A stretch of DNA of 38,391 nucleotides. It comes from Pyrinomonadaceae bacterium. GTDB taxonomy: Bacteria; Acidobacteriota; Blastocatellia; Pyrinomonadales; Pyrinomonadaceae. The notes beneath the pieces were generated by a model. It had not been told where the DNA came from and ran no database searches. It was given only the letters and a program-made list of their open reading frames with translations. The stretch lies in assembly GCA_013003295.1 (NCBI GenBank), contig JABDJV010000487.1, positions 1 through 38,391 of the forward strand, read 5' to 3'. Shown piece by piece: positions 6,246 to 24,285 of this stretch; within the stretch, counting starts at the first letter, position 1; each line of letters opens with the position of its first letter. The translations under genes and the position numbers were made by a program.

Positions 6246-6731
6246 CTAGCCTCCAATAATAACCGTTGGGCAACCCATTACAATCGGGTCTTCCCCCCCG
6301 AGTGCTTCTACGACCTTATCTCCTTGTCTCGCAGCAGGCATATGGTTTATCAAAACACTAGACGATCCCTGAAGTACAACTCCCGGACCGTGTGGTGCCG
6401 GGACCGGCGCAGCACAGGGTATCAAACAGTTGTGCATATCAAACGCCCCCAATAGCGACGTCATCGCGGCGGTAGCGGCAGCTTTAGCGGCGGTTTCAGC
6501 GGCGATTGCCGCGGTTTTTGAAACCGGATCGGGTGCCGCCTTTGAGGCTTCTTCTAGGACTTTAATTGATGTTTGCACACCTTGAAGAGTGGCTTGTAAT
6601 CCTGCTGCTGCGGCGGCTGGAACCGCGCGCCACGCAGGAAGAAATCCTATTAATACGTTTACACTCCCAGGCCCTGGCATCAAGGGTGTTCCGTGTCCGG
6701 TCGCATCCGTCGGTCGCGCTGCTGCTGGCAT
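6246..6731 (-). CDS. PAAR-like T6SS spike-tip protein
   Basis: 161 aa; MPAAARPTDATGHGTPLMPGPGSVNVLIGFLPAWRAVP ... PHGPGVVLQGSSSVLINHMPAARQGDKVVEALGGEDPIVMGCPTVIIGG. Confidence 0.85.
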   Translation of the reverse strand: MPAAARPTDATGHGTPLMPGPGSVNVLIGFLPAWRAVPAAAAAGLQATLQGVQTSIKVLEEASKAAPDPVSKTAAIAAETAAKAAATAAMTSLLGAFDMHNCLIPCAAPVPAPHGPGVVLQGSSSVLINHMPAARQGDKVVEALGGEDPIVMGCPTVIIGG

Positions 6732-6814
6732 TGTCTATTCTCCTTCTTTTTGTTTCACTATTTGAATCGCTTAATGAATTCGCAGGCGCGATGTGCATTC
6801 CTAAATATATTTAA

Positions 6815-6852
6815 TTGATTTAACCATCGATAATTATCGATGGTTAAATCAA
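6815..6852. terminator. 38-bp perfect palindrome between the two PAAR genes, overlapping the upstream PAAR stop codon; possible terminator/attenuator or processing hairpin
   Basis: ttgatttaaccatcgataattatcgatggttaaatcaa is its own reverse complement; read directly. Confidence 0.6.
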
Positions 6853-7337
6853 CCGATTAATACCGCTATTTCTCCCCTACTGATCGGGTTATTACCACCG
6901 AGTGTCTCAACGACCTTGTCGCCTTGTCTCGCCGCCGGTAAATTGTTAATTATCACCGTAGTCGAGGCCTTCAAGACAACCCCTGGTCCGTGAGGAACAA
7001 ACGAAGGTGAAGCAAATTTCGGACAAATATGGATATCAGCCCCGGTTTGCGCCATTACACTTGCCATTGTTGAGTTTGCTGCCGTTTTCGCCGCCGTTTC
7101 CACCGCCAATGCGGTCGACTTCGATGCCGGATCAGGAGCGGTTTTCGTCGCGGTTTCTAATGACGTCATAGTGGTTTCCACAGCGGTTAGTGCGGCCTGA
7201 AGGCCGGCTGCGGCGGCTACGGGAACGGCGCGCCAAGCGCGCAAAAATCCAATCATGACATTCGGACTACCCGGACCGGTATTTAACGGTAGGGAAAAGT
7301 GGCTGGTCCAATCTGATACTCTCGCTGCTGGTGGCAT
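6849..7337 (-). CDS. PAAR-like T6SS spike-tip protein (paralogue of 6246-6731)
   Basis: 162 aa; MPPAARVSDWTSHFSLPLNTGPGSPNVMIGFLRAWRAVPVAAAAGLQAAL ... PHGPGVVLKASTTVIINNLPAARQGDKVVETLGG. Confidence 0.85.
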   Translation of the reverse strand: MPPAARVSDWTSHFSLPLNTGPGSPNVMIGFLRAWRAVPVAAAAGLQAALTAVETTMTSLETATKTAPDPASKSTALAVETAAKTAANSTMASVMAQTGADIHICPKFASPSFVPHGPGVVLKASTTVIINNLPAARQGDKVVETLGGNNPISRGEIAVLIG

Positions 7338-7355
7338 TATTTTATTCTCCTTATA

Positions 7356-8483
7356 CTATTTCTTTTCTAACTCATCGATCAGCAGGCCTTCGTTGGCCAA
7401 AGTGTCAGCCTGCATTCCCCTAAAAAGCGCTACAAAGCCTTCCTCGTCTTCCGAAAGGGTTCCCTCAAAAAACTTAATCGCCCTTAAAAGCCGCAATTTT
7501 GATCCCTCTATCTGTTTTGGTGTTAAGTTATCAAAACTATCTAATTTCGGAATAATATCTCGAAAAACCGTTGTAACCTGTTTCTTAAACGGCTGTCGAT
7601 CTACCCGTTTGCTCTGCTCGGCAACATCCTTTGCCCATGTCTCCTGCCGAATTCGTCTTGCGGCCCACGGCTGCAGGAATTCCTGGTAGCCAAATCCAAC
7701 GGCGATATAAGCCTTTATTTCCTGTTCGATGCGTTCGTTTCTATCGGCGATTCCCACTATCTCGTCTTTGATCGACTGAACCTTCTCGGCACGGTCAAGT
7801 TTTCTCGAGACGTTTTCGACGAATTCCAGATACTCAAGACGGGCCTGGTAATCGGTTTCCTGTTTCGCTTTCAATGCCTCTGTTTTTGTTTTAACTTTTG
7901 CTCGGATGCTTGCGGAATTCGCGCCAAGATCAAGTGCTTCGTGGAGGAGGATCACCTCTTCAAATTCCGCCTGCGAATCAATCTTTGTTAACAGATGCTC
8001 GTAATACGATTTAGCGAACGCCTTATCTTCATTGTCGCCCAGCCTCGCAATTATCCGTGCCAGGACGGTGGACTTCAGATTATCTTTAGTCTCTGCCTCA
8101 CTCTTATCAAGAAATCCTTTCAGCTTCTCAACCAGTTCATTGCTGTCATAGAAAACCGCTACCTTTTCAGCCTGAATGTACGTTTTTAATTTTGCACCCT
8201 TTTCAATTTTTTCTACCAAGTACGCTGCCACATCAGCCGGCTTGAGTTTTCGGGGAACAACATTCCCGGTAAACTCATCCGGTTTAAATATGAATTCGTC
8301 AAGTTCCGGAATCTCCGGTGCTTCTGTCGGCGGCTCTTCGCCTTGTGAAATTTCCTCGTTTGATTTTTCTTGTTCTTCAGACATAACTTTCAATCCTCTA
8401 CATCCAACAAATAATAACAGCGACGAAATAACTACAAACCAGATTAAAAATCGAATTCGGCAAGTATTACTAACTGATCTCAT
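7356..8483 (-). CDS. Putative lipoprotein, charged and probably alpha-helical; candidate immunity/accessory protein for the adjacent metallopeptidase
   Basis: 375 aa; FLIWFVVISSLLLFVGCRG lipobox-like N-terminus, then a highly charged region; starts 9 bp after the metallopeptidase stop. An internal start (MSEEQEKSNEE) would remove the signal. Confidence 0.6.
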   Translation of the reverse strand: MRSVSNTCRIRFLIWFVVISSLLLFVGCRGLKVMSEEQEKSNEEISQGEEPPTEAPEIPELDEFIFKPDEFTGNVVPRKLKPADVAAYLVEKIEKGAKLKTYIQAEKVAVFYDSNELVEKLKGFLDKSEAETKDNLKSTVLARIIARLGDNEDKAFAKSYYEHLLTKIDSQAEFEEVILLHEALDLGANSASIRAKVKTKTEALKAKQETDYQARLEYLEFVENVSRKLDRAEKVQSIKDEIVGIADRNERIEQEIKAYIAVGFGYQEFLQPWAARRIRQETWAKDVAEQSKRVDRQPFKKQVTTVFRDIIPKLDSFDNLTPKQIEGSKLRLLRAIKFFEGTLSEDEEGFVALFRGMQADTLANEGLLIDELEKK

Positions 8484-8492
8484 CGTTTCATA

Positions 8493-10301
8493 TTACCATG
8501 GCTCCAGCAGCGGAGCTCCTTCCAACCGCATACGGTTTATCATATTGAAATCACCTCCGGCGGCACCACCATAGGCGACCGCTCCGTCACGAATTCGCTT
8601 GCAGCAGTTAACCGAGTTTGAAAAATCTGTTCCGCCTTGTTCCATGAATGAGACCTCGTCAGGCGGAGCCGCTGCCGGGGCGTGCAAGACCTCGCCCAAT
8701 ATGTGTCCGATCTCATGAGCAAGCACCACCGGGTTGTTATCTGTCGAATCCATGGTGTTTCCAACCAATAGGGCCGAATATTTGATCTGTGAAACCGCGG
8801 CGCGGGTCGGTGCAAAACGATGCCCCGAAAATGTTGCAGTTCCACGCAGCGCTGGCGACGTCATCTGGATCACGTAGAGATCGATGCGATCATCGCCCGT
8901 ATCAAAATTCCTGAACAAGGCCCTTTGCTGAATGCTTCCGATCAATCCACTTGGGATAAAAGGTGCCCGCGGCAGGCTGAGCGGGTTTACGCGTCCAACC
9001 GTCACTGATTGTCCGCTGTCATTTGAAACCGGTGGATCAATGGTTACGCGAGCTCCACCGGCCTCGATAATCAATATGTCGGCCGACTGGAGATCGTCTG
9101 AGATCGCATCCGTCCGCGCAGGATTAAGCGCGACGGTCGCTGAGTATGGGGCCGAAACCAACGCCGCAAGGGCCGCGGCGGTCGTCGCCGGCGTATCACC
9201 GGCTGTCGGCGTGATCGGTCCGATCGTTTGCGACGGATGTCCGGTCGCGTTGATAGTAAACCCGAGTGTGCCGTCACCAACCGCAGGTGTTCCAGTATCA
9301 TCCGAAACCGAAACCAGGTTTTCCGGAGGATCTATAGCCCTCACCGCGATCATAAGTTTCGGTGCAATTGCGGCCTGCGCGTAAACCCGACGTAACCATG
9401 TGTGAACCCTTCGCTCGGCATCTGCGAGGGAAACCGGCAGGGCTCCGCCTGGTGTCGAACGGACTACTGATAAAGCTATTCTTAAACGGCGCCGATCGGT
9501 TCCCACTGGAAGCTTTACGATGGCCTTGCATTTCGGATTCTGCGGGCAAGTGGGTATTTCGTAAGAGGCTTTTATCAATTGATCCAGGATCTCAACTTGT
9601 TTCGCTGCACCTGCTCCATTACCTTCATCTGCGACAAGAATTGTCTGCTTATCTGCCGCCGCCTTATCGTCAGCGTCAGTCACGAGGCGCAAATATCCCG
9701 TGCGGAACCGCTGTGTCGAACCCTGTTTTTCGGCCTTCGATGCTAGCTTCCGTTTCGCCGCATCGGTATCGGTAAATGAGCGGTGCCCGGTTACCACCCC
9801 GGCAGCATTGTAAATCGGGCGCAAGGCCTCGATCTCGACGTCAAGAAGCCCGCTCGCATTAATATCAAGCACCTCAACCTTAAAAGTATCCTGGTCTTTG
9901 TCCCCGTGGGAGTGAAATCGGCGAAAGTCAAAAGCCGGGAATGGATCGCTCCCGTCGGGATCGTTTCCGCGGTTGGTGACGTAGTTGCTGACGTTCAAGA
10001 CGGTTTCGGTTGGATCTTGCGCATAGGGCAGAGTCGGCGATCCGTGGGTGAATCTGATCGTGGCCATCGTTCCGCGTTTTACAAAGACGTGTTTTTTTTC
10101 GGTGCTTCCGTCTTCCTGCTTTTCCAGGAAATCCGGAATCGTAACGATGTCTCCCGGATTTACCTGAGCCGGGTCATCTGCTCGATTGATAATAAACGCG
10201 TTCGCCGCCTCGGCTCTTAGAGCCGTGCAATCGGGCAGCCCATTTACATGAGCTATGTTACATAGCGAGTCACCTGGTTCTGCTTTATGAGTTGTTGGCA
10301 T
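8493..10301 (-). CDS. LysM-like domain protein with C-terminal HExxH zinc-metallopeptidase motif; putative T6SS effector
   Basis: 602 aa; N-terminal LysM-like HKAEPGDSLCNIAHVNGLPD...NPGDIVTIPD; C-terminal VVLAHEIGHILGEVLH with downstream VSFMEQGG; located between vgrG and PAAR genes. Confidence 0.75.
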   Translation of the reverse strand: MPTTHKAEPGDSLCNIAHVNGLPDCTALRAEAANAFIINRADDPAQVNPGDIVTIPDFLEKQEDGSTEKKHVFVKRGTMATIRFTHGSPTLPYAQDPTETVLNVSNYVTNRGNDPDGSDPFPAFDFRRFHSHGDKDQDTFKVEVLDINASGLLDVEIEALRPIYNAAGVVTGHRSFTDTDAAKRKLASKAEKQGSTQRFRTGYLRLVTDADDKAAADKQTILVADEGNGAGAAKQVEILDQLIKASYEIPTCPQNPKCKAIVKLPVGTDRRRLRIALSVVRSTPGGALPVSLADAERRVHTWLRRVYAQAAIAPKLMIAVRAIDPPENLVSVSDDTGTPAVGDGTLGFTINATGHPSQTIGPITPTAGDTPATTAAALAALVSAPYSATVALNPARTDAISDDLQSADILIIEAGGARVTIDPPVSNDSGQSVTVGRVNPLSLPRAPFIPSGLIGSIQQRALFRNFDTGDDRIDLYVIQMTSPALRGTATFSGHRFAPTRAAVSQIKYSALLVGNTMDSTDNNPVVLAHEIGHILGEVLHAPAAAPPDEVSFMEQGGTDFSNSVNCCKRIRDGAVAYGGAAGGDFNMINRMRLEGAPLLEPW

Positions 10302-10321
10302 CTATGTTCTAAAGTCCTCCG

Positions 10322-12715
10322 TTATTTTTTCTCCCAACTTCTTCCGTCCATGTCAGGGAATGTGATCTGACAATTTCCGGGATCGATACTTTCGACTCTG
10401 GCTTCGCCTTTGCTGTCCAAAGTGCCGCTGGCAACAGTGCTTCCATCTGGCAAAGTCACTAGATATTTTTCACCCGGAACCGGATTTCCCTCATCGTCTT
10501 CCAGTTTTATTTCGATCCACGATTTCTTATCCTCATTCTTGCTCGAATTCGGATTGTGCGATGGAGAAGATCCGTACATCATTTTCTCAAATCGAGTTCG
10601 GTCTGCGATCTGATTCTTATATGTCGGCGATTTGCTGCCGGGATCTGCGTTATCAGCAATAAGAGCTTTTTCCGGTTCGGTCACGGGACATAAATTCGCG
10701 GAACTAGCCGAACCCGCAGCGCCTCCACTATTTATTTTGACCATTGATCCGACAATGTCTACGCCTCCCGGGTGTACTTTGATGAAGTTTCCTCCGCATT
10801 TAAGAGTGACTGCCGTTGATGCATCGAGAACGATTTCTCCAGCCGCAATCGATACTTTTTGGCCGACATCAATCGTGTAGTTTTTTATAATGGCCACATC
10901 CACATTTTCATAGTTTTGCTCGGTGACGTCTTTTTCGTGGAGCTTGTGATACGTATCCATTATCCGGGTATGTACTTTCTTTTCGTATTGGTGATAGGTA
11001 TCCCGTTCGACAATTTTATGTTCGTCGCGCTTAATATGCTCGCGCTTGTCACGCTGAATAAATGTGTGTCGATCGTTTGCAACAAGTTCACGGCGATCAT
11101 TCTTTATCCGCATATCGAGATCTTTTTGCGCGTGGACAAATACTTGCTCCTCACCCTTTTTATCTTCAAAGCGAATTTCATTGAATCCGCCTCCGCCTTT
11201 TGATGAATCGGATTTAACCCCGGATTTCGTTTTTTCATCCGGCAGCGGGTAGGGAGGGATCATGTCCGGATTGTAAACGCACCCGCCAACTATCGGCTGG
11301 TCCGGGTCTCCTTCGAGAAAATCGACTACCACTTCCATCCCGATCCTGGGTATGAACATCGAACCCCATCCGTTACCGGCCCAGGATTGCGTAACCCGCA
11401 TCCAGCAGGAGCTATCGGCATCCACCTGTCCCTGCCTGTCCCACGGAAACTGAACCTTTATCCGGCCAAATTCATCGGTAAAGATCTCCTCGCCCGCCGG
11501 TCCGACGACGACTGCCGTTTGACTGCCCTGGACGATCGGTTTTGGGGTAACCCTCTCCGGGCGGAAAGGGGGTGCACCCGCTCCATGGGGAATGCAGCTA
11601 AAGCTATTTAAGTAAGATTCTCCAAGGTCTTCATCGGAAACATAGGTCGGCGATTGCTCGGCACGATGACTTACCGAAGTCAATACATACTGCCGATTCC
11701 TATCCCTTTTCGGATGCTTTTCCAGGTTAAACCGATAACCACCTGTGAGGGCACAGCAATTCGACGCACCGCTTAAGACTTCAAACTGTGAATCGAGCGC
11801 TTCCATTGTATTCTGAAGTGTTCGGTCTTTATCGGGGAATATTCCATCCAAGCCGCTAGAATTGTCACCGCCCATTCGGTCTTTTCCGTCATACTTTCGG
11901 GCATAGCCTCCTGGAAATTCATAAACCTCAAGATTGTGATTGTCTCCGACCTTGTGCATCGACTGCACACTTGCAGAGAGCATGTTACCCGGAAGCTGAA
12001 AATTGCGATCCCGAAACGCGATGGCACCCGTCTGTAACTTAAAAGCGGCTTTTATGTCTCGGATCACTGAAACAAAGCCTTCCTCAGTCGACATGTCCAA
12101 CTGATAATCGATCTCATTTTTGCCCGGGTTGTCCTGGTGGGATTGGGGCGTGTTGGCGATTATCATTTTATGATTTCCTTCAGTATGTTCGAAGTAGTAG
12201 TAGAAACCCTCTTCTTCCATCAAGCGTGAGGCAAAATTAAAATCGGTTTCCCTGTATTGAACGCAGTAATTTCGCCGTTCGAAGTCTCCCTGAATCTGAA
12301 ATACAACCTCAAATCCATCAAAAACCTCTTCTAAGATCTCTTGAACACTTTTATGCTGAAAAATACGGCTTTGAGATTTTTGGGTAAGAAGCCAAACGTG
12401 CGGTACGATCGTGGCGGAGTAGTAAGTAAAACGAGTGCTCCGGTTTCCCTGTGAAAACTGATTTACCATGCCATTAAAATTTCTGGCGACCCCATCATCC
12501 TGTGTGACCGTGATCGAGACGCCTTTTCCAAGGATCGATTGAATGTCAACATCGGTAGGCTCATGACCCTCCTCTTCTTCTTCATGAAGGAGTTCGACGC
12601 TGATTTCAAAAAGCCCGGAAAGCTTTTCAGTAGCATAAAATTTGTTAAGTAATAGAAAGTCTTTTTCTAAAGGAGTCTCTATTTTTAGCAGCCTATCATC
12701 TTGTGTTGTCGCCAT
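10322..12715 (-). CDS. vgrG: VgrG (TssI) spike protein with C-terminal beta-rich extension
   Basis: 797 aa; FERRNYCVQYRETDFNFASRLMEEEGFYYYF, GRIKVQFPWDRQGQ...SCWMRVTQSWAGNGWGSMFIPRIGMEVVVDFLEGDPDQPIVGGCVYN; tail WIEIKLEDDEGNPVPGEKYLVTLPDGSTVASGTLDSKGEARV. Confidence 0.95.
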   Translation of the reverse strand: MATTQDDRLLKIETPLEKDFLLLNKFYATEKLSGLFEISVELLHEEEEEGHEPTDVDIQSILGKGVSITVTQDDGVARNFNGMVNQFSQGNRSTRFTYYSATIVPHVWLLTQKSQSRIFQHKSVQEILEEVFDGFEVVFQIQGDFERRNYCVQYRETDFNFASRLMEEEGFYYYFEHTEGNHKMIIANTPQSHQDNPGKNEIDYQLDMSTEEGFVSVIRDIKAAFKLQTGAIAFRDRNFQLPGNMLSASVQSMHKVGDNHNLEVYEFPGGYARKYDGKDRMGGDNSSGLDGIFPDKDRTLQNTMEALDSQFEVLSGASNCCALTGGYRFNLEKHPKRDRNRQYVLTSVSHRAEQSPTYVSDEDLGESYLNSFSCIPHGAGAPPFRPERVTPKPIVQGSQTAVVVGPAGEEIFTDEFGRIKVQFPWDRQGQVDADSSCWMRVTQSWAGNGWGSMFIPRIGMEVVVDFLEGDPDQPIVGGCVYNPDMIPPYPLPDEKTKSGVKSDSSKGGGGFNEIRFEDKKGEEQVFVHAQKDLDMRIKNDRRELVANDRHTFIQRDKREHIKRDEHKIVERDTYHQYEKKVHTRIMDTYHKLHEKDVTEQNYENVDVAIIKNYTIDVGQKVSIAAGEIVLDASTAVTLKCGGNFIKVHPGGVDIVGSMVKINSGGAAGSASSANLCPVTEPEKALIADNADPGSKSPTYKNQIADRTRFEKMMYGSSPSHNPNSSKNEDKKSWIEIKLEDDEGNPVPGEKYLVTLPDGSTVASGTLDSKGEARVESIDPGNCQITFPDMDGRSWEKK

Positions 12716-12912: not shown

Positions 12913-13272
12913 TCATCCTGAAGCCTGTTTCAATCTATCGAGCCTGCTTGTAAGCTCTCGTTTTTCAGCGCCGATTTGATCTTTTATTTCGGTCGAATAA
13001 CAATAGTCTTCATTTGAAAGAACCATTTCGAGGGCATTGATCGCAATTTGCAGATCCTCTTTCAAACTGGCTATAGGCCAGATGTACACACGTCCCAACT
13101 GCAAAACGCAATAAGCGGCCGCACGCAATTCCGCGGTATTTTCACCGTATGGGTCGTCTTCTTTGGAAAGCAGTAATGTTTTACGAACATGTTTCGGCAA
13201 GTCCGTTTTGTCCAATAGTTTTCCAAACCAATCCGCAGCGGCGTCATTATCCCATGGTTCATTGCCCCACAT
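12913..13272 (-). CDS. Small protein, DUF4259-like; candidate immunity protein
   Basis: 119 aa; N-terminal MWGNEPWDNDAAADWFGKLLDK resembles the DUF4259 start motif; downstream of the Rhs toxin. Confidence 0.55.
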   Translation of the reverse strand: MWGNEPWDNDAAADWFGKLLDKTDLPKHVRKTLLLSKEDDPYGENTAELRAAAYCVLQLGRVYIWPIASLKEDLQIAINALEMVLSNEDYCYSTEIKDQIGAEKRELTSRLDRLKQASG

Positions 13273-13279
13273 GTTTTCG

Positions 13280-13636
13280 TCAAGAAGCGATCTCGTCCAA
13301 TTCTGCGAAGAGGCTATCGGCAGATGCTTTTATGCCCGTTCGAAATTTTGCCGGAATCTTTTTCTCAGCCCGTTCAAACCAATTGCCAAACGTTTCCCGC
13401 CAGTCGTTTACATCCTCGGATAATATAAGTAGTTCGGCGTCTTGTTCGAACTTTTTCGATAAATGAAGAAGAATGTCGATATGTGCCAGCATTATCTGAA
13501 TCGGCGTATCCACTCCTTTCAGACGGGCAGATTCCTCTTTGATCTTATCGATCGCCATATTCATATACAGGGCGTGCTCTAAGTCAGCAGCCTCATTCCC
13601 GTTTGGCTCGGTACTATAAATCTTCAAATTGCTCAT
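13280..13636 (-). CDS. Small acidic protein immediately downstream of the Rhs toxin; candidate cognate immunity protein
   Basis: 118 aa; no recognised family; starts 13 bp after the Rhs stop. Confidence 0.55.
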   Translation of the reverse strand: MSNLKIYSTEPNGNEAADLEHALYMNMAIDKIKEESARLKGVDTPIQIMLAHIDILLHLSKKFEQDAELLILSEDVNDWRETFGNWFERAEKKIPAKFRTGIKASADSLFAELDEIAS

Positions 13637-13649
13637 AATAAATAACCGC

Positions 13650-16600
13650 CTAGCACGCTTTGGTTTTTTGTCGTTTCTTCAATCCCTCAACATCTTCCGG
13701 AGTATCGAGCCGTTTTACCTTCTTCAACGGTTTATCGACCCATCTGTCAGGCGTTCGGCCCCGGTTCTTATTCAAAAGGCCCGATTTTTTAAGCTGGTCT
13801 TCGACCGAGTCGAAAGGACTGTATGATCCGCGCTTCTGAGCCAGCCTTTGACGTATCAGGGCTGCCTCAAGAGATCGAGCCTGATCATGGGTCAATCCCG
13901 ATGCGATCACTTGCATTTTTGCAAACCTTTTGCCGCTATCGATGTGTTCGTTTCCTCGCGTCAATGCGGTTCTTTCCGTAATTCCGTAATAGATAACGTT
14001 GCCTTTGGAATCGAGCAATTGATAGACGATCTCGTCAAGGCCGAGGGGGTCAAACCACATGACCGGGTTGGTGCAATACTCATAGAGGTTAAAATTACCA
14101 AACAAACCGATCGGATCCTGGTTTACATACCTGCAATCATCAGCCGAATAATATCGAAAACGATTATAAAACAGGCCCGTTTCCTCATCCTCATATTGTC
14201 CCTGAAAACGGATATTCTGCTCCGTTTTCTCGATAACCGGATTTACCTTTCCGTACTCATCGTAGTTTCCCTGCCAAATTATCTCGCCGGATTCATTGGT
14301 AACTTCTTTTGGCGTTCCAAGGTAATCGGTATGGTAAGTTTCAACCTCGCTATTGCTCACCTTGGCGACCGGGACAAATCCATCATGTATATAGTGAGTG
14401 TCGTTCTCCAGCAGAAGTACGTCACCGTCCCATAGAAATTGGGTTTCATTGTCTTTAGTTTTCTTTAAGGTTCGGCGGCCGAAAGCATCATATTCAAATT
14501 CGACTTTTTGGTTATCTTTGGTGATGGCAATCACCTGGTCGGCCGAATCATAGGTGAAAAGGGAAGTCGGGCCTTCCGCGGCTCGTTTTTCGACCAGATT
14601 TCCAACGGCATCATATATGTACGTTGTCTTACCTTGTTTTTTGAGCTTGTCACCTTTACTGTATTTGAATTTTCGTGAGCCGGATACATTGCTCTTCCGT
14701 TCAATGAGATTTCCATCGGCATCATATTGAAACTCTTCAATTTCCTTGACCTTGGCGTTATCCCATCTTGAGAGATTCGATTCTGCCTGCCACAAGCGCT
14801 TCTCGGGTGGGATCCAACCGCGTGGCTTATCTTTTGGAACATCTGGTGTTTTAGTGTCCGGTGTTCCGGCAACAAGGCGCTCGACGGTTTTTAAACGCTC
14901 AACCGCGTCATACTGATAACGCTTTCCGCCGCGAAGCGAATCGTGGATTCCAACTACGTTTCCCAGTGAATCCCACTCGTAATCTCGTTTAACGACCTCA
15001 CGGCCGCCCGCGCCAACTGTTACCTTTTCAACGCTCAAACGCCCGTTGATGTCATACTCAAACTGTTCTTGCAACCCATTGGCCGAGTCTTTCGCCGTAA
15101 GTCGCCCGACCTGGTCCCGCAAGTAATTTATCTCGTTTTCGGCTAATTTTATGGTTGAAAGGTTGCTGTCTTTGTCATAGCTGTATTCAACCTTGGCTTT
15201 TTCATGTAAATCCGAATCCAAATTGCGGGCCGTTCGTCTGCCTTCCAGATCGTATTCGAAGCTGACTGTCTTGCCATTTTGATTCTCTCTAATAACCTGC
15301 CACGCATCGTCGTATGTCAATTTAATTTCCGAATTGGAATTTCTCGCGCCGGTAATTCTTCCACATTCATCGTACTCGTAGTCGACCGTTTCTGCCTTTG
15401 GCATCAGCCGCCGGACGACGCGTCCCATCGCATCGCGTCGATAGTAGGTCTCTCGCTTTAGCGCATCTTTTTTATAAACGAGCTCGCCGGCTTGATTGTA
15501 TTTGTAGCTTGTTATTGCCCCGTCAAATCCGATTTCCTTAACGACGCGGTCGAGTAGATCGTATTCAAATCGGTAGTTTTCATTGTTTTCATTGACAATT
15601 TTCTCGAGGCGCCCCTCTTCGTCGTATTCAAACTGGCGTTCATGTCCCAGAGAATCCACCCGTCTCGCAAGTTTGTCGTAGCCGGAATACTTGTAGAGGG
15701 TTTTGTTTCCGTATGCATCGATAAGAAGCGTCATATTGTCCTGGCTATCATATTCATAGCGTTGGACATTGATCGTCTCCCTCTTCGGATTTATATCGGC
15801 AATTCTTTTGACCCGTCCAACATCGTCATATCGATAGCTGGTTTTTATATCCGTAACTTCATCAACAACTTCCTCAAGAAAACCGCGCTCATTGTAATTG
15901 TAAGAAACCTTTCCGCCCCCTGGTTTTTCGACGGATTTTATTTGTCCGGCGGTTGTCCAGGCAAATTGAGTTTCGTTGCCGAGCGCATCCCGGAAGATCT
16001 TTATGTCGCCGGATTTATCGTAGTCATATTCACGTCTGGCATCGAGCGGGTTAATAGTGGCGACAATATTTCCCGAATTATCGTATTCGCGGGTCCAAAC
16101 TGCTCCTGATTCGTCAGAAACCGCGATCGGTTGGCAGAAATCGTTGTATTTGACCGTGCGAACCGTGCCGTCTTCCTGCGTGGCTGCTGTACAGTTTAAT
16201 TGGTCGTCGTAAGCGTAAGTTCTGATTCGTCCGATCTCATCTTTTTCCTGGAGAAGTTCACCATTTAAGCCGTAATCAAATTCCGAAATTCCGCCCTCGG
16301 CGTCAAAAACTTTTGTTACGAGTTCGAGATCGTTGTAATGGTAGATCGTTTCGCCGCCGAGTCCGTCTTTCTCGCGGGTCATATTGTTTTTTGGCAGATA
16401 GGTCAACCAGCGCTCATAGATCCCGTCATCGCCCCACGTGTGAACACATCGTGCTTCCGTACCGGCCCCCTCGTATTCGAAATGAAAGCTGAGACCATTC
16501 CGATTGGTCTCCTTAGTCATCAGATGGTTTTCATATGAATATGTGTAGGGGACGTAGCTCCGATTCGTTGCTGAAGTCAATTCTGCGTCGCCGTTGTAAC

Positions 16601-18050
16601 CAAAACGCATCAAGCTTATATCCTGACCGTTGGTTAAATGATGACGAACTTCACCGAGGCGTTTCCTGCCTGCAACCCTTTGATAGTGGAGCGTGACGAA
16701 TCCAGCCGTATTGCCGTCGATCTCTACAAGACTTCTATCTTCGTATTTCAGGTCTAAGAAATTCTCGTTGCGATCAAAAACCTTCAGGAGGCGAAGAGCT
16801 TCTTTTTCAGATCGGAAATCTTCGGAATCCGTCTGCCCAAATGAGTAATAGAGCCCGTCTTTACAATCGAATAACTCGTATTCTGCTTCACTTTTTCTCT
16901 CCAGCCAGACACGTTCGAGCGGTTGAAATTGCCGATCGCCTATATTCAGCTTTTCAAATCTAACCTGGTGGTTTTCCTGATTTCTCCAAACTAAGCAGTT
17001 ATAACGCTTGCTCTGCCACAAATGCTGGTCATACGGATGCGTCCAACCCCAGCCAAGCGAACTTTCGTAATCGATTCCGGATGTGTCATAAACTCGCTCG
17101 AAGACAATTGGAATGCGGCCCCTGATCTCGAAATCGGTACTGGTCGTGTACATACGGCCGGTCGCCACCTCAACCGGGTGCCCGGTCACGCGGCATAAGG
17201 CGTTTCTGGTTCTTCCGGGGGGGAGTTTCAATTGGATTCGCCTTATTACGGGCTTGAGCATTTTGAACAAACCCTTCATTATAGTCATCCAACCCGGCAT
17301 CGGGAATCCGCCGACCAGGACGTTTGGGCTCCCCATGGTGATGATGCCAAACGGAAATCCTACGCCGGGGTCTTTGCCCATCAGTAAACCCATTGCCATA
17401 GCAGCGGCATCGGCGGCGAATTGTGCGGCGGCGGTTGCCGCGCCAACGCCCGCGGCAGCAGCTGCGGCTGCGGCCATTTGAGCGTCAGCCTCGCCCTGCT
17501 TTTCGCTTGCTTCATAGGTAGCCTCAACGGATTTTTCGACAGATGCGGCGACGTTCAGCGCACTCATCCCCATACCAAATCCGGCCATGGCAATATCCAG
17601 CTTGCCGATTCCCCATTTCCCTCCAAACGGCGAGGGCAGACAGTGGTAGGTCGGATCCATCAATTGCCTTGCGGCCCTGGAACCGCCTATGAAGACGTGC
17701 GATGAGCCCATGAAAATCTCGAAAATCGGAAAATAGCCGCCACACCAAACAGCAAATCCCATGTCGCCATTTCGTGCCGCCGGCAGGCCGTTGATCAAAA
17801 CGCTCATACATCCCGATGCGACCACCGGGCCCAAGCTTGGGATCGGAAAACCAAATGTAGGCGGGTGAGGGTGTGAATGGCCAAACTGGAACACGAGATC
17901 TGTATACAGTCTTGCGGCGGGCATTTTGGGAAGAAATTCGAGAGCTTTGAGCGTAGCTTTGGCAACCCCTAAGTTAAGGGCATCGATCGGCGCGGTAATG
18001 GTTTTCATTACCTCGCCTGTAAATTGCTGCACATTTTGAGCTGTTCCCAT
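13650..18050 (-). CDS. Rhs/YD-repeat polymorphic toxin with N-terminal PAAR-like region and C-terminal GIY-YIG-like nuclease
   Basis: 1466 aa; N-terminal PAAR-like FGHSHPHPPTFGFPIPSLGPVVASGCMSVLINGLPAARNGD; many YD repeats (YEYDSQDNMTLLIDAYGN etc.); Rhs core end YNRFRYYSADDCRYVNQDPIGLFGNFNLYEYCTNPVMWFDPLGL; C-terminus DEIVYQLLDSKGNVIYYGITERT...SLEAALIRQRL. Confidence 0.92.
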   Translation of the reverse strand: MGTAQNVQQFTGEVMKTITAPIDALNLGVAKATLKALEFLPKMPAARLYTDLVFQFGHSHPHPPTFGFPIPSLGPVVASGCMSVLINGLPAARNGDMGFAVWCGGYFPIFEIFMGSSHVFIGGSRAARQLMDPTYHCLPSPFGGKWGIGKLDIAMAGFGMGMSALNVAASVEKSVEATYEASEKQGEADAQMAAAAAAAAGVGAATAAAQFAADAAAMAMGLLMGKDPGVGFPFGIITMGSPNVLVGGFPMPGWMTIMKGLFKMLKPVIRRIQLKLPPGRTRNALCRVTGHPVEVATGRMYTTSTDFEIRGRIPIVFERVYDTSGIDYESSLGWGWTHPYDQHLWQSKRYNCLVWRNQENHQVRFEKLNIGDRQFQPLERVWLERKSEAEYELFDCKDGLYYSFGQTDSEDFRSEKEALRLLKVFDRNENFLDLKYEDRSLVEIDGNTAGFVTLHYQRVAGRKRLGEVRHHLTNGQDISLMRFGYNGDAELTSATNRSYVPYTYSYENHLMTKETNRNGLSFHFEYEGAGTEARCVHTWGDDGIYERWLTYLPKNNMTREKDGLGGETIYHYNDLELVTKVFDAEGGISEFDYGLNGELLQEKDEIGRIRTYAYDDQLNCTAATQEDGTVRTVKYNDFCQPIAVSDESGAVWTREYDNSGNIVATINPLDARREYDYDKSGDIKIFRDALGNETQFAWTTAGQIKSVEKPGGGKVSYNYNERGFLEEVVDEVTDIKTSYRYDDVGRVKRIADINPKRETINVQRYEYDSQDNMTLLIDAYGNKTLYKYSGYDKLARRVDSLGHERQFEYDEEGRLEKIVNENNENYRFEYDLLDRVVKEIGFDGAITSYKYNQAGELVYKKDALKRETYYRRDAMGRVVRRLMPKAETVDYEYDECGRITGARNSNSEIKLTYDDAWQVIRENQNGKTVSFEYDLEGRRTARNLDSDLHEKAKVEYSYDKDSNLSTIKLAENEINYLRDQVGRLTAKDSANGLQEQFEYDINGRLSVEKVTVGAGGREVVKRDYEWDSLGNVVGIHDSLRGGKRYQYDAVERLKTVERLVAGTPDTKTPDVPKDKPRGWIPPEKRLWQAESNLSRWDNAKVKEIEEFQYDADGNLIERKSNVSGSRKFKYSKGDKLKKQGKTTYIYDAVGNLVEKRAAEGPTSLFTYDSADQVIAITKDNQKVEFEYDAFGRRTLKKTKDNETQFLWDGDVLLLENDTHYIHDGFVPVAKVSNSEVETYHTDYLGTPKEVTNESGEIIWQGNYDEYGKVNPVIEKTEQNIRFQGQYEDEETGLFYNRFRYYSADDCRYVNQDPIGLFGNFNLYEYCTNPVMWFDPLGLDEIVYQLLDSKGNVIYYGITERTALTRGNEHIDSGKRFAKMQVIASGLTHDQARSLEAALIRQRLAQKRGSYSPFDSVEDQLKKSGLLNKNRGRTPDRWVDKPLKKVKRLDTPEDVEGLKKRQKTKAC

Positions 18051-18058
18051 CTCGTCGG

Positions 18059-19339
18059 TTACTGAGCACTAGCTTCTTTCACAAGGTTAGGCTCAATGTC
18101 TTCAAGCTCCTTGGTGATCCGGTTATATTCCTTTTCGCATTTCTTGTGGTTTTCAGTATCATTTTCGCCTTCGTGGAGCTCCATCAAACCATGTAAAATG
18201 CTTCGCAAACCCAGCTTAAATTCCTCTTTTCGGCAAATTTCCGCCGCCTTTTCATAAATTTCCCGGGCTTCATCTATCTCTTTAAGACAATGCTTGGTTT
18301 TTCCCATCCGCTCCATAGCGTGAATCCGCTGGGCGAGGATCTTGTTTGCATCCGCTAGTTTTTCGGCCGAATCGTAATAGATAAAGGCTTCTTCATATTC
18401 CTCCTGCATAAATAGCGAATTGCCCAAATTTATGCTTTGGTAAAGAACCATTGGCTGGGATTTTCTCTCAACGGAGATGTTTACCGCATCTTCATAGTGC
18501 TGCTGTGCGGTTGGAAAGTCACCCTGGAGATAATGGATATCACCGATGTTGTTCCGCACGATGGATTCATTCTCCTTCTGCTTCGTTTTTTTATAGTAGG
18601 ACAATACCCGCTCGTTTTTTTCAAGTGCCTGATCGTAGTTCTTTTCGGCGACGTCGACGCCGGCCATCAGCATCACGCTTTGCATCTTTTCATCTTCCGG
18701 AGCATTTTCGTTTTCCGACTGTTCTTCGAGCTTTTTCAGAACCGACTGAAAATCGAGCTCCGGACGGTAGAATGTTACCGCCGGATTCTTTTCTCCATAA
18801 CCTAAATGCTCTCTCAAAAAACCTGAGGGACAGTCCCTGATGATCAGCTTAGTATTGTCAAGATCACCTGCGAGCACCTTTTCCGATACGTACGAGAAAA
18901 GCTTCAAGTAAAACTCCTCCTTGCTTACATCGGAAAGCGGATAAAAGATCCAGATCACCTGACGTTCTGGATCGACGACCTTCCTGATATGGGCCATTAG
19001 CTCGAAAAATCTGATCTTGCTCGGTTTATTTCGTTCAAATAACTCTGAGGGAATCTGCCTGATAGTGTCCAGATTTTTCTTTTCAAGCTCAATATTGAGC
19101 TGCTCGATCTGCTCCTGTTGACGCTCCAGCACCAATTCAACATATTTACGTGTATCCTGAAACTCATCGCCGAACGACAAATAGATATCATGTGAAAGCT
19201 CGTTTTCCTCAACCATTCCAAACGTCTTCAGAAGCAGGGGTGCTTCTTCGGTTTCGGCTTCGATGAGCATTATCGATTGCTCCTCGTGGTCGACAAAGCT
19301 CTCCAGTGTGTCAACAATTTCCTGAATGATGTGCCGCAT
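18059..19339 (-). CDS. TPR-repeat protein between vgrG and rhs; candidate effector adaptor/chaperone
   Basis: 426 aa; TPR-like ESIVRNNIGDIHYLQGDFPTAQQHYEDAVNIS / LYQSINLGNSLFMQEEYEEAFIYYDSAEKLA; N-terminal region not recognised. Confidence 0.7.
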   Translation of the reverse strand: MRHIIQEIVDTLESFVDHEEQSIMLIEAETEEAPLLLKTFGMVEENELSHDIYLSFGDEFQDTRKYVELVLERQQEQIEQLNIELEKKNLDTIRQIPSELFERNKPSKIRFFELMAHIRKVVDPERQVIWIFYPLSDVSKEEFYLKLFSYVSEKVLAGDLDNTKLIIRDCPSGFLREHLGYGEKNPAVTFYRPELDFQSVLKKLEEQSENENAPEDEKMQSVMLMAGVDVAEKNYDQALEKNERVLSYYKKTKQKENESIVRNNIGDIHYLQGDFPTAQQHYEDAVNISVERKSQPMVLYQSINLGNSLFMQEEYEEAFIYYDSAEKLADANKILAQRIHAMERMGKTKHCLKEIDEAREIYEKAAEICRKEEFKLGLRSILHGLMELHEGENDTENHKKCEKEYNRITKELEDIEPNLVKEASAQ

Positions 19340-19355: not shown

Positions 19356-21431
19356 TTAGTTGATCTTAACGAGAACGCCCGTGATCGTTACTCCGCCGGC
19401 GTCAATTTTGATTTGGCCGCCGGGGCCGCTTAAAACCAATTCCATCCCCGCGCTGATTTTTATCGTTTTTGACGATTCACTTATCTCATTTGTAGCGCTG
19501 ACCGTTAATTTATCGCCAATATTGTCGGTTTTGTTATTCGCTACTGAGGTCGTTTCACTTTTACCGACGCTCGTAGATTTTTCACCGCCGACGTCGTGAG
19601 TCATATTTTCGCCGATGGTTACGGTCTCATTTTTCGAAACCACTTCCTCTCGAAAACCCTTGATGGTGATCTTTTCCGTGTCTTCGCCGCTGCCGACCGT
19701 TTCGGTTCGGTTGTGGACAATTGTCGACGTTTCATCATTATCGACGGTTTTCGTCCGATCATTTTTTACGTGGAGAGTTTCATCATGACCGACGATCTGG
19801 TTTTTATCGTTTTCAACCATGATCGTCCAGTCTTTTTCAGCGTGGAGATAAACTTCTTCTTCTCCTTTCTTGTCCTCAAAACGAAATTCATTGAAGTTTT
19901 CGGGGCTTCCGCCTTTACTCGAACGGCTCTTAACACCGCTTTGTGTTTTGTTATCAGGAAGGGTGTAGGGAGGCATCGTATCCGGGTTATAAACAGAGCC
20001 GACAATTATCGGCCTGTCAGGATCGCCTTCAATGAAATCGACAATTACTTCTTGCCCGATTCGCGGGATGTGTATCACGCCCCATTGCTTGCCGGCCCAA
20101 AGGGTTCCGACTCGCATCCAGCAGGAGCTATCGGCATTTTCCTGACCTTCCCGATCCCAATGAAACTGGGCCTTTACACGGCCATATTTATCGGTAAAAA
20201 TTTCCTCGCCGGCCGGTCCGACGACAACGGCGGTTTGGCTTCCGCGGACAACCGGCTTTGGTGTCCGCTTTTTGGGCCGAAATGGAGGGGCTCCTGATCC
20301 ATGGGGAATACAGGTGAAATTGTTGCTGTACGGGTTATTTACTTCATCGCCCGATATATAGCTTGGCGATTGCTCGGCATGATGCACGACCGCTGTCACG
20401 ATGTATTGCCTGTTTAGTTTTTTTCCCGGGTGCTTCTTAAGCTTGAAGCGGTGCCCTCCCGTGAATCCACAGCAGTTTGACGATCCGCTGAGGACCTCGA
20501 ACTGCGAATCCAAAACCTGCATGGCATTTTCAACAGTACGGTCCTTGTCCGGAAATACACCTTTGAGGTCGCTTGGGCTTTCACCGCCGCCCCGATCAAT
20601 TCCATCATATTTTCGCGCATATCCGCCCGGGTAATCGTAAGATTCGAGATCCTGATTGCCACCCACCTTAAACAGGCTGGGAAGCGTGGATTCGAGCTTG
20701 TTCGTATTTAACTGAAAGTTGTAATCGCGATTCGCGATCTTGCCTGTTTGAAGGGTGAAGTCGACAACCAGATCATGTACGTAGGAGACGAAGTCTTCCT
20801 GTTCCATCTGTTCAACGTTATACGTGATCTCACTCTTGCCCGGATTATCCTGGTGGGACTGCGGCGTGTTGCCGACGATCATCTTATGACTTCCACCCTT
20901 TTGCTCGAAATAATAATAGAAACCCTCTTCTTCCATCAGACGCGAAGCAAAACCAAAATCGGATTCACGGTATTGAACACAGTAATTCCGCCGTTCGAAT
21001 TCTCCCTGAATTTCGAACGCCACTTCATATCCCTCGAAAACTTTTTCAAGTATCTCCTGAACACTTTTGTGCTGGAAGATGCGGCTTTGGCGTATTTGGG
21101 TCAATAGCCAAATTTTTGGCACGATCGTGGCGGTATAAAAAGAAAAGCGTGCATTTCGGTTTCGTTTCGAAAACGAATTTACAATACCGCTGAAGGTGCG
21201 GGAGACCCCATCCTTTTGGCTGATGGTAACGGTAACATCCTTGCCAAGGATTGAGTTTATGTCTACATCCGTAGGTTTATGCCCTTCTTTGTTTTCCTCA
21301 TGCCGAAGTGCGACCTCATATTGGTATAGGCTGGAAATCTCTTCGACACCGTAGAAGGAACCCAATAATAAGAAATCTTTTCCTAAAGGAGTTTCGATTT
21401 TCAACAATCGATCGTCTTGTGTTGTTGCCAT
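19356..21431 (-). CDS. vgrG: VgrG (TssI) spike protein, no C-terminal extension
   Basis: 691 aa; N-terminus MATTQDDRLLKIETPLGKDFLLL and FERRNYCVQYRESDFGFASRLMEEEGFYYYFE nearly shared with the other VgrG; ends in a repetitive beta-helix TVTIGENMTHDVGGEKSTSVGKSETTSV. Confidence 0.95.
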   Translation of the reverse strand: MATTQDDRLLKIETPLGKDFLLLGSFYGVEEISSLYQYEVALRHEENKEGHKPTDVDINSILGKDVTVTISQKDGVSRTFSGIVNSFSKRNRNARFSFYTATIVPKIWLLTQIRQSRIFQHKSVQEILEKVFEGYEVAFEIQGEFERRNYCVQYRESDFGFASRLMEEEGFYYYFEQKGGSHKMIVGNTPQSHQDNPGKSEITYNVEQMEQEDFVSYVHDLVVDFTLQTGKIANRDYNFQLNTNKLESTLPSLFKVGGNQDLESYDYPGGYARKYDGIDRGGGESPSDLKGVFPDKDRTVENAMQVLDSQFEVLSGSSNCCGFTGGHRFKLKKHPGKKLNRQYIVTAVVHHAEQSPSYISGDEVNNPYSNNFTCIPHGSGAPPFRPKKRTPKPVVRGSQTAVVVGPAGEEIFTDKYGRVKAQFHWDREGQENADSSCWMRVGTLWAGKQWGVIHIPRIGQEVIVDFIEGDPDRPIIVGSVYNPDTMPPYTLPDNKTQSGVKSRSSKGGSPENFNEFRFEDKKGEEEVYLHAEKDWTIMVENDKNQIVGHDETLHVKNDRTKTVDNDETSTIVHNRTETVGSGEDTEKITIKGFREEVVSKNETVTIGENMTHDVGGEKSTSVGKSETTSVANNKTDNIGDKLTVSATNEISESSKTIKISAGMELVLSGPGGQIKIDAGGVTITGVLVKIN

Positions 21432-21481: not shown

Positions 21482-23020
21482 CTAACTAATTTCGTAAACA
21501 AAATTTTCGTCATCTCCAACCGAAACGTGTGCTTTCGAAATGCCCTCACCGGTGGCCATGCGTGATAAAACCTCACCACTCATTTCCGGCAGCAGCGTAC
21601 CCATTAGAATATTAATCACATTTCGGGCACCGCTATCGACGTCAGTGCAGCGGCTTGCAACCGTATCCACAACAGATTCGTCGTAGGTGAATTTGGCATC
21701 GTGATTGTTGGCAATACGTCTTTCGATCTTGCCTAATTGGAGTTTGACGATTTCTTTCAATACGTCATCTGAAATGGGGTAATAAGGAACTGTGACCATC
21801 CTTCCGAGCAGGGCCGGTTTAAAGGCCTTGACCAATTCCGGACGGATCGCTTCCTCAAGACCTTTCGGGTCAGGCCGCGTCTCCGGATCAGCGTTCAGCG
21901 ACATGATCAAATCAGTCGCAACGTTTGACGTGAGAAGAATAATGCAGTTTTTGAAGTCAATCTCACGACCCTCTCCATCCTCTAAAACTCCCTTATCGAA
22001 CACCTGGTAAAAGAGTTCCATTACGTCGGGGTGTGCCTTTTCAACTTCGTCGAGCAAAACGACCGAATAAGGCTTTCTGCGTACCGCTTCCGTCAAAACG
22101 CCGCCTTCTCCATAGCCGACATAGCCCGGAGGAGAACCCTTTAGAGATGAAACCGTATGGGCCTCCTGGTATTCGCTCATATTGATCGAAATCAGGTTCT
22201 TCTCGCCGCCGTAAAGCGTCTCTGCCAGGGCCAGAGCGGTTTCCGTTTTTCCTACGCCGGAAGTTCCGACGAGCAGGAATACACCGATCGGGCGCTTGGG
22301 GTCAGTAAGCCGGGCACGGGACGTCTTGATTCTTTCTGATATCTCAAGAAGTGCATGGTCTTGTCCAAGCACTCGCTCTCCAAGCGTTTCTTCAAGCTTC
22401 ATGATTGCAAGAATTTCATCGGCAACCATTTTTCCAACCGGGATTCCGGTCCAGCCCGAGATCACTTCTGCGATCGCCTGTGAATCTACGACCGGCGACA
22501 TTAGAGGCGTTTCACCTTGGAGCTCTTTGAGCTCATCGGCCGCCTTCCTAAGCTCGGTTTTTAGGGCCTCGGTATCAATTTGCTCGGTAGATTCGGTGGC
22601 CTTTGCAGTTGCTGTTGATTCGCCGCTGGGGTTTGAAGCTTCCGCACTGACTGCGTCAGAAGAATCTTCTGCGGTTGCTGCTGCTGTATCAGCAGGCGCT
22701 TGCGATTGCTCGACGACCGGCAGCGCTGCGTCCACGCGCGACATTTCAAGTTTAGTTCGGATGGTCCGGATCTTATCGGTAAGCTCCTTCTCTTTTTCCC
22801 ACTGCTCAGTAAGCGTTTTTAGTCTCTCCTCTGTTTCCGAGCGCTCCGCTTTCAGTTCTTCAAGTCGTTCGTTGTGGTCAGAACCAGTAACTTCCTCACG
22901 TTCGAGGGAATCGACCTCGTTGCTTAAATGCTCGATTCGCCTTGTTGCGTCTTCGACCGCCGCCGGCGTGGCTCCCTGCCCGATCGCAACCTTTGCGCAA
23001 GCAGTATCTAAAACACTCAC
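21482..23020 (-). pseudogene. tssH: ClpV/TssH AAA+ unfoldase, C-terminal part (downstream of an apparent frameshift)
   Basis: 512 aa; ISGWTGIPVGKM, second Walker A VGTSGVGKTETALALAETL, SEYQEAHTVSSLKGSPPGYVGYGEGGVLTEAVRRKPYSVVLLDEVEKAHPDV; the open frame begins at a GTG with no start of its own expected for the family. Confidence 0.85.
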
Positions 23021-24285
23021 GGACTTGTCGGGAAGCTGCCGACCGGAATATATCGATGCGAAAGTTTAACGCTGTCAACCACCGCTTCATCGAGAATTCG
23101 GACGCTGTGATGCTCTTCCATTTTTGCCGCTATCGCGCGCATCATTCCGATCGCCTGATCTTCATTTGGTTCTTCGATCTTGACAACCTGAAATCGTCTC
23201 GCAAGCGCCGCATCTTTTTCAAAATACTTTTTATACTCGGCCCACGTGGTAGCCGCAATTGTCCTTAGTTCTCCACGCGCGAGAGCAGGTTTCAGGAGGT
23301 TTGCGGCATCATTTTGCCCGGCCGCTCCGCCGGCACCGATCATCGTATGCGCCTCATCAATAAACATTATTATTGGCTGCGGCGATGACTTTACTTCATC
23401 GATCACCGACTTAAGCCGACTTTCAAATTCGCCTTTAACACCCGCACCGGCCTGAAGCAGACCGAGATCAAGCGATCTTACCGCAACATTCTTCAAGGGT
23501 TCCGGAACATCACCTTCGGCAATTCGTAGAGCGAAGCCTTCAACTACAGCCGTTTTACCAACACCAGCCTCACCGGTAAGGATCGGATTATTTTGACGAC
23601 GGCGTGTCAATATGTCGATTATCTGCCGAATCTCGAAATCCCGCCCGAGAATCGGGTCGATCATTCCATCACGCGCCTTGGCGGTAAGATCCTCAGCATA
23701 CTGATCCAATGCTTTTGTTTTTCCGGGAACTCCGGCCGCGACCTGTCCGTCACTTGAAACACCCGCGGTTTCGCCCAGCGCCGAAGCCTCGCGTTCTTCC
23801 GCCGAATCAGCCGTTATATCAGCAAGCTCTTTCTGCAATGATTCGACCGAAATGTGGCTAAATTCTTTGGAGATGTCCCGCGCGATTCGAGCCATACTTT
23901 CATCCTGCAGAAGCGATAAAACCATGTGTCCCGACCTAACCCGCGCCGCACCGAAATCGATGGATGCTTTTAGCCAGGAGTCTTGTACCCAGCGGGGAAC
24001 GCGCTCGCTTAACCCGGGTGTCCGCGTATTGCCTGTTTTTAAGCGATCGAGAGAGGTATTCACGTCCTTTGTCAGACGGTCAATATTTACTTCGTAATGA
24101 TTGCAAATCTTGTGTAAGTCGGTGTCGTCCCTTTCAAGAAACTTCATTAAAAGATGTTCAATTTCAACATCGTAATTTGTGCGCGAGAGGCATAATCCGG
24201 CAGCGTCTTCTAAAACACCGCGACAGGTATCGTTTAATCGTCCAACCAAAGACTTTAAATTTACATTCATTGTAATTTCTCCCAA
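23017..24285 (-). pseudogene. tssH: ClpV/TssH AAA+ unfoldase, N-terminal part (upstream of an apparent frameshift)
   Basis: 422 aa; N-domain VNLKSLVGRLNDTCRGVLEDAAGLCLSRTNYDVEIEHLLMKFLE, Walker A NPILTGEAGVGKTAVVEGFALRI, IIMFIDEAHTMIGAGG; ends ...DSVKLSHRYIPVGSFPTSP* where HRYIPGRQLPDKSVSVLDTACA is expected. Confidence 0.88.

What the first reader, a model, noticed from the sequence alone, without database searches (positions are those of the whole stretch)
18059..19339. TPR protein in the adaptor/chaperone position between vgrG and rhs: candidate new T6SS effector adaptor
Known T6SS cargo adaptors (DUF4123/Tap, DUF1795/EagR, DUF2169) are typically encoded between vgrG and the effector. Here that slot is filled by a 426-aa protein with an unrecognised N-terminal region (~200 aa) and C-terminal TPRs, with gaps of only 8-17 bp on either side. 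No DUF4123/EagR-like gene was seen elsewhere in the window. A TPR-based loader for an Rhs effector is a testable hypothesis; the function is inferred from position only.
Basis: partly seen in the sequence, partly recalled or inferred. Interest (0 to 1): 0.65.

Follow-up and report, generated by a model that had tools for sequence, protein, structure and literature searches.

The report
New T6SS spike-tip accessory protein family
A small repeat-protein gene wedged between the spike and toxin genes of a bacterial "molecular crossbow" belongs to an undescribed, rare family that, wherever it was found, sits beside the same unusual kind of spike-tip protein, so it is probably a new kind of helper that mounts that tip and its toxin on the spike.

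Summary
A 426-aa gene (18059-19339, minus strand) lies 16 bp after vgrG and 8 bp before a PAAR-Rhs gene. Residues about 224-371 are TPRs; residues 1-213 match no Pfam, NCBIfam or PDB sequence. The contig is Pyrinomonadaceae (Acidobacteriota).

I found four relatives: three in other Pyrinomonadaceae and one in Burkholderia arboris (19-56% identical). All five sit directly upstream of an unusual ~290-aa "long PAAR". In four, vgrG is the next gene upstream; in B. arboris a small spike-like gene intervenes. Among 119 family genomes, and in plasmid searches, the same genomes carry the TPR protein and the long PAAR.

In two loci PAAR and Rhs are separate genes, and the TPR gene stays beside PAAR. 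TPR divergence tracks VgrG (r 0.95) and PAAR (0.96) better than Rhs (0.73). G020 and G483 share 72% VgrG, 67% TPR and 77% PAAR but only 35% Rhs, with different toxin ends. That argues against immunity and for a chaperone/adaptor of the VgrG-PAAR tip.

Binding is unproven. I found no such adaptor described in the open papers searched.

The parts
18059..19339 (-). TPR protein, 426 aa; candidate chaperone/adaptor of the VgrG-PAAR tip
18701..19339 (-). its N-terminal domain (residues 1-213), no recognised family; low-confidence alpha/beta layout in models
18227..18670 (-). its TPR region (about residues 224-371; the modelled helical array runs from about 197 to 415)
19356..21431 (-). VgrG, 691 aa, ending bluntly at the beta-prism with no C-terminal extension
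17181..18050 (-). long PAAR module (first 290 residues of the PAAR-Rhs protein): N-terminal helix region, PAAR core, AARxxxDxxxH element, Ala-rich helical insert, final PAAR-like segment; proposed client
13650..17180 (-). Rhs cage and C-terminal end with a weak GIY-YIG nuclease match
13280..13636 (-). 118-aa ORF directly after the Rhs gene; candidate immunity gene by position only
12913..13272 (-). 119-aa ORF with a DUF4259 match; second small gene after Rhs

Best explanation
The TPR protein is a dedicated cytoplasmic chaperone/adaptor for one kind of VgrG-PAAR spike tip. Shown here: it forms a conserved genetic module with a long PAAR domain and a VgrG. Inferred: its TPR groove and unknown N-terminal domain bind the long PAAR module (N-terminal helix region, prePAAR-like element, Ala-rich helical insert), keep it folded and soluble, and help to place it on the blunt VgrG tip, so that the Rhs cage and toxin, fused to PAAR or encoded as the next gene, are loaded with it; it would be released before or at firing. 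It would work like EagR/DUF1795 or DUF2169 (TvpA) chaperones while being an unrelated family.
For: Five of five family members lie directly upstream of a long PAAR, in four of them with vgrG as the next gene upstream and in B. arboris with one small spike-like gene between. TPR and PAAR ORFs overlap by 4 bp in three loci and are 6-8 bp apart in two. Of 119 Pyrinomonadaceae genomes the same four have the TPR protein and the full-length long PAAR; four others match only the PAAR core. The phylum sample and plasmid collection give the same one-to-one picture. TPR distances track VgrG (0.95) and PAAR (0.96) more than Rhs (0.73); in G020-G483 VgrG, TPR and PAAR are 67-77% identical and Rhs 35%. In split loci TPR stays beside PAAR. 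DUF2169 was not found in the genome.
Against: No interaction, secretion or structural data. The N-terminal fold is unresolved. Co-occurrence partly reflects one operon inherited together, and only five loci were found. The distance correlations rest on ten non-independent pairs. EagR elsewhere in the genome was not excluded.
Confidence: 0.62

Rival explanations
1. It is an immunity protein (TPR-containing putative immunity proteins are described next to Rhs effectors) that protects the producer from the Rhs toxin.
For: TPR proteins are proposed as Rhs immunity proteins in E. coli and Salmonella (PMC7216683, PMC11669294). It lies beside a toxin gene.
Against: It lies upstream, not downstream, of the toxin. 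It is 67% conserved between G020 and G483, whose Rhs proteins are 35% identical with different toxin ends. G483 has an Imm26 gene after its Rhs gene.
Confidence: 0.06
2. It is a structural or assembly accessory factor of the spike or baseplate for this VgrG (as Tvp or TagJ-type proteins are), needed for any firing with that spike, and not a cargo chaperone.
For: It diverges with VgrG as well as with PAAR. In B. arboris a small OB/gp5-like gene precedes it, reminiscent of TvpC-type partners in Tvp complexes (PMC13373197).
Against: In the genomes surveyed it goes with one PAAR type only; other VgrGs of the same genome have no such neighbour. This overlaps with the preferred explanation and cannot be fully separated from it by sequence.
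Confidence: 0.2
3. It is itself a secreted effector, or an unrelated passenger gene in the operon.
For: TPR-repeat proteins are listed among genes flanking orphan VgrGs in a Xanthomonadales survey (PMC6653060).
Against: No toxin domain was found. Tight spacing and strict association with one PAAR type in two phyla argue against a passenger.
Confidence: 0.06

Closest known systems
EagR/EagT (DUF1795) chaperones of prePAAR effectors (PMC7773334)
   Same: Gene next to a PAAR-Rhs gene; client with a prePAAR-like element and hydrophobic or Ala-rich helices; client sometimes split into a PAAR ORF and an Rhs ORF
   Different: No DUF1795 match and a different fold (TPR plus unknown domain); the client's AARxxDxxxH-like element lies after a first PAAR core, is one residue longer in three of five, and its helices are only borderline hydrophobic
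DUF2169 (TvpA)/Tvp complexes (PMC13373197)
   Same: Encoded between vgrG and the PAAR gene; proposed to chaperone PAAR onto VgrG; the B. arboris locus also has a small OB/gp5-like gene after vgrG
   Different: No DUF2169; PAAR here matches PF05488, not the DUF4150 type; no TvpB- or TvpD-like gene recognised
DUF4123 (Tap/TEC) adaptors
   Same: Position between vgrG and effector gene
   Different: No DUF4123 match in the protein
TPR chaperones of type III secretion (LcrH/SycD family)
   Same: TPR fold (weak hit far below the family cut-off); would likewise cradle a secreted partner before export
   Different: Other secretion system; extra 213-residue N-terminal domain; no membership

Membership tests
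DUF4123 (Tap/TEC) adaptor | DUF4123 (PF13503) domain in the protein | tested here: not met
   Pfam scans of the whole protein and of the N-terminal part: no DUF4123
EagR/DUF1795 chaperone | DUF1795 (PF08786) domain in the protein | tested here: not met
EagR/DUF1795 chaperone | client with prePAAR motif AARxxDxxxH and hydrophobic helices | tested here: inconclusive
   Motif exact in G020 and G483, one residue longer in the other three, and placed after a first PAAR core; best 19-residue hydropathy in the insert about 1.3-2.0
DUF2169 (TvpA) chaperone | DUF2169 (PF09937) domain in the protein | tested here: not met
   also none in the genome
DUF2169 (TvpA) chaperone | binds PAAR and stabilises it for assembly on VgrG | not testable with these tools
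   needs complex prediction or pulldown
TPR superfamily | several TPR motifs above the curated cut-off, forming a helical array | tested here: met
   TPR_12 75.4 bits against a cut-off of 30.1; confident helical array in the model; Foldseek hits to LGN and kinesin light chain TPRs
Rhs immunity protein | varies with the toxin end | tested here: not met
   67% identity between loci whose Rhs proteins are 35% identical with different ends
P-loop NTPase (STAND/AAA_16) N-terminal domain | Walker A P-loop and profile similarity to AAA_16/STAND domains | tested here: not met
   No GxxxxGK[ST] in any of the five aligned proteins; profile comparison no better than unrelated controls

The most novel reading that the evidence does not exclude
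A previously undescribed family of T6SS chaperones, built from a new N-terminal domain plus TPRs and dedicated to a long, interrupted PAAR module, that takes the place of Eag or DUF2169 chaperones in some Acidobacteriota and Burkholderia.
Probability: 0.5. Interest if true: 0.65.

Novelty: new variant of a known kind. Interest (0 to 1): 0.5.

Why it matters
T6SS adaptors decide which toxin is loaded on which spike; the literature read here recognises DUF4123, DUF1795 and DUF2169 proteins with their partners. An unrelated TPR family that follows one PAAR type across two phyla would mean that tip chaperoning has arisen independently at least once more. It would also give a sequence marker for new PAAR and Rhs effectors in soil bacteria whose T6SS is little studied, and a simple test of what in a PAAR module demands a chaperone.

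Tried and rejected
Degenerate P-loop NTPase for residues 1-213: suggested by the alternating alpha/beta layout, but profile comparison with STAND/AAA_16 domains from related genomes scored no better than unrelated controls, so it is not claimed. PDB sequence search with a four-member N-terminal profile: no hit. Foldseek with two AlphaFold2 models: only TPR proteins in the listed hits; the N-terminal part is low confidence because only three sequences could be used. IMG/VR with the TPR proteins: nothing; with the long PAAR: two contigs with B. arboris-like Rhs proteins that begin at the Rhs gene, so the upstream gene is not in the record. The single genome-contig scan found only two members already known, because its peptide patterns came from the TPR part; phyla other than Acidobacteriota were therefore sampled only through plasmid and viral collections. 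Immunity role: rejected on divergence pattern and gene order.

Full report
What is there. The ORF at 18059-19339 (-) encodes 426 aa, 16 bp after vgrG and 8 bp before PAAR-Rhs. It sits near the 3' end of a T6SS cluster on the minus strand: TssK (cut by the contig end), TssL, TssM, an ImpE-type protein, TssA, TssB, TssC, Hcp, TssE, TssF, TssG, ClpV (in two frames), VgrG, TPR, PAAR-Rhs, two small ORFs, then a second VgrG with two proteins of unknown family and two PAAR proteins. Pfam places TPRs at about residues 224-371 and recognises nothing in residues 1-213; NCBIfam is equally silent there. AlphaFold2 gives a confident helical TPR array and a low-confidence alpha/beta N-terminal part. Foldseek lists only TPR proteins, led by LGN and including kinesin light chain, which are partner- or cargo-binding TPRs.

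Where the family occurs. Same-family genomes that the database names are Pyrinomonadaceae, so the window is Pyrinomonadaceae. A search of 60 relatives found two members, G028 (56% identical in the N-terminal part) and G020 (24%). A search of all 119 family genomes held, with a four-member profile, added G483. A tblastn of the G020 protein against 72,556 plasmid-type records found one more, in Burkholderia arboris; a search back with that protein found only itself. In a phylum sample of 396 genomes only the window genome and G028 have it. The family is therefore rare but present in two phyla.

Gene order. Window and G028: vgrG - TPR - PAAR-Rhs. G020 and G483: vgrG - TPR - PAAR - Rhs, with PAAR and Rhs as separate ORFs; in G020 there are undetermined bases between the two ORFs, so that split is less sure there. 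B. arboris: T6SS core genes - clpV - vgrG - small gp5/OB-like gene - TPR - PAAR-Rhs - a 268-aa downstream gene. The TPR stop and the PAAR start overlap by 4 bp in three loci and are 6-8 bp apart in the other two. Where PAAR and Rhs are split, the TPR gene stays next to PAAR.

Co-occurrence with one PAAR type. The PAAR modules of all five loci share an unusual layout: an N-terminal helix region, a PAAR core, an AARxxDxxxH-like element, an Ala-rich helical insert ending in a conserved AAQxAAD...MGKDP stretch, then a final PAAR-like segment. Among 119 family genomes, exactly the four with the TPR protein have the full-length module; four other genomes match only the core. The phylum sample and the plasmid collection give the same one-to-one picture. 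Simple counting (4 of 4 against 0 of 115) gives about 1e-7, but the two genes sit in one operon and can be inherited together, so this shows a module and not independent events. As a contrast, G036 has vgrG followed by a short PAAR fused to a Peptidase_M91 domain with no TPR gene between.

What it diverges with. Over the ten pairs of five loci, TPR distances correlate 0.95 with VgrG, 0.96 with PAAR and 0.73 with Rhs (few, non-independent points, and only the last 312 residues of the G020 VgrG are available). The clearest pair is G020-G483: VgrG 72%, TPR 67%, PAAR 77%, Rhs 35%, with different toxin ends. An immunity protein should follow the toxin end; this one does not. G483 has an Imm26 gene after its Rhs gene. 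The family therefore most likely serves the VgrG-PAAR tip.

The spike side. The VgrGs of the TPR loci end at the beta-prism, whereas the three other VgrGs seen in this genome carry C-terminal extensions, two of them with a prealbumin- or carboxypeptidase-regulatory-like segment. One reading, offered as inference, is that the same organism uses fused C-terminal domains for some payloads and a separate TPR protein for this tip.

Mechanism. PMC7773334 reports that effectors with the prePAAR motif AARxxDxxxH and N-terminal transmembrane helices almost always occur in genomes with Eag chaperones, and that some are split into a prePAAR-TMD-PAAR ORF and an Rhs ORF. The long PAAR here has a similar element (exact in G020 and G483, one residue longer in the others), placed after a first PAAR core, and its helices are borderline hydrophobic. 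PMC13373197 describes DUF2169-based Tvp complexes that chaperone DUF4150-type PAARs. The simplest explanation is a further, unrelated solution: a TPR protein that cradles the PAAR module or its helical insert and passes it to VgrG. Conserved linkage and co-divergence are shown; binding, chaperoning and release are inferred. A spike-assembly role for this VgrG, not specific to the PAAR cargo, is the main rival and cannot be separated from it by sequence.

Limits. EagR was not searched genome-wide, DUF4123 was searched without a working control, and the MAG is 85% complete. The papers searched are open-access only; a Xanthomonadales survey lists TPR proteins beside orphan VgrGs without analysing them, so other members may already have been seen as unnamed neighbours.

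Noticed in passing
21482-24285 (-): ClpV (TssH) is split over two overlapping frames, while G028 has one 926-aa ORF; a frameshift in the genome or an assembly error, near 23017-23060.
   Followed up: partly
6246-12715 (-): A second vgrG module: VgrG with a C-terminal extension (10322-12715), a 602-aa and a 375-aa protein of no recognised family, and two PAAR-domain proteins of about 161 aa; possibly another unrecognised effector or adaptor set.
   Followed up: partly
L017:11193-11984: In B. arboris a 263-aa protein with a weak gp5/OB-fold match lies between vgrG and the TPR gene, resembling the position of TvpC-type proteins in Tvp complexes.
   Followed up: partly
L028:1-4626 and L029:1-5734: Two contigs filed as viral in IMG/VR carry B. 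arboris-like long PAAR-Rhs genes cut exactly at the gene start, so they look like mis-bounded proviruses next to a T6SS locus.
   Followed up: no
L040:2960-3832: PAAR fused to a Peptidase_M91 effector domain directly behind vgrG in another Pyrinomonadaceae genome, with no adaptor gene between.
   Followed up: yes
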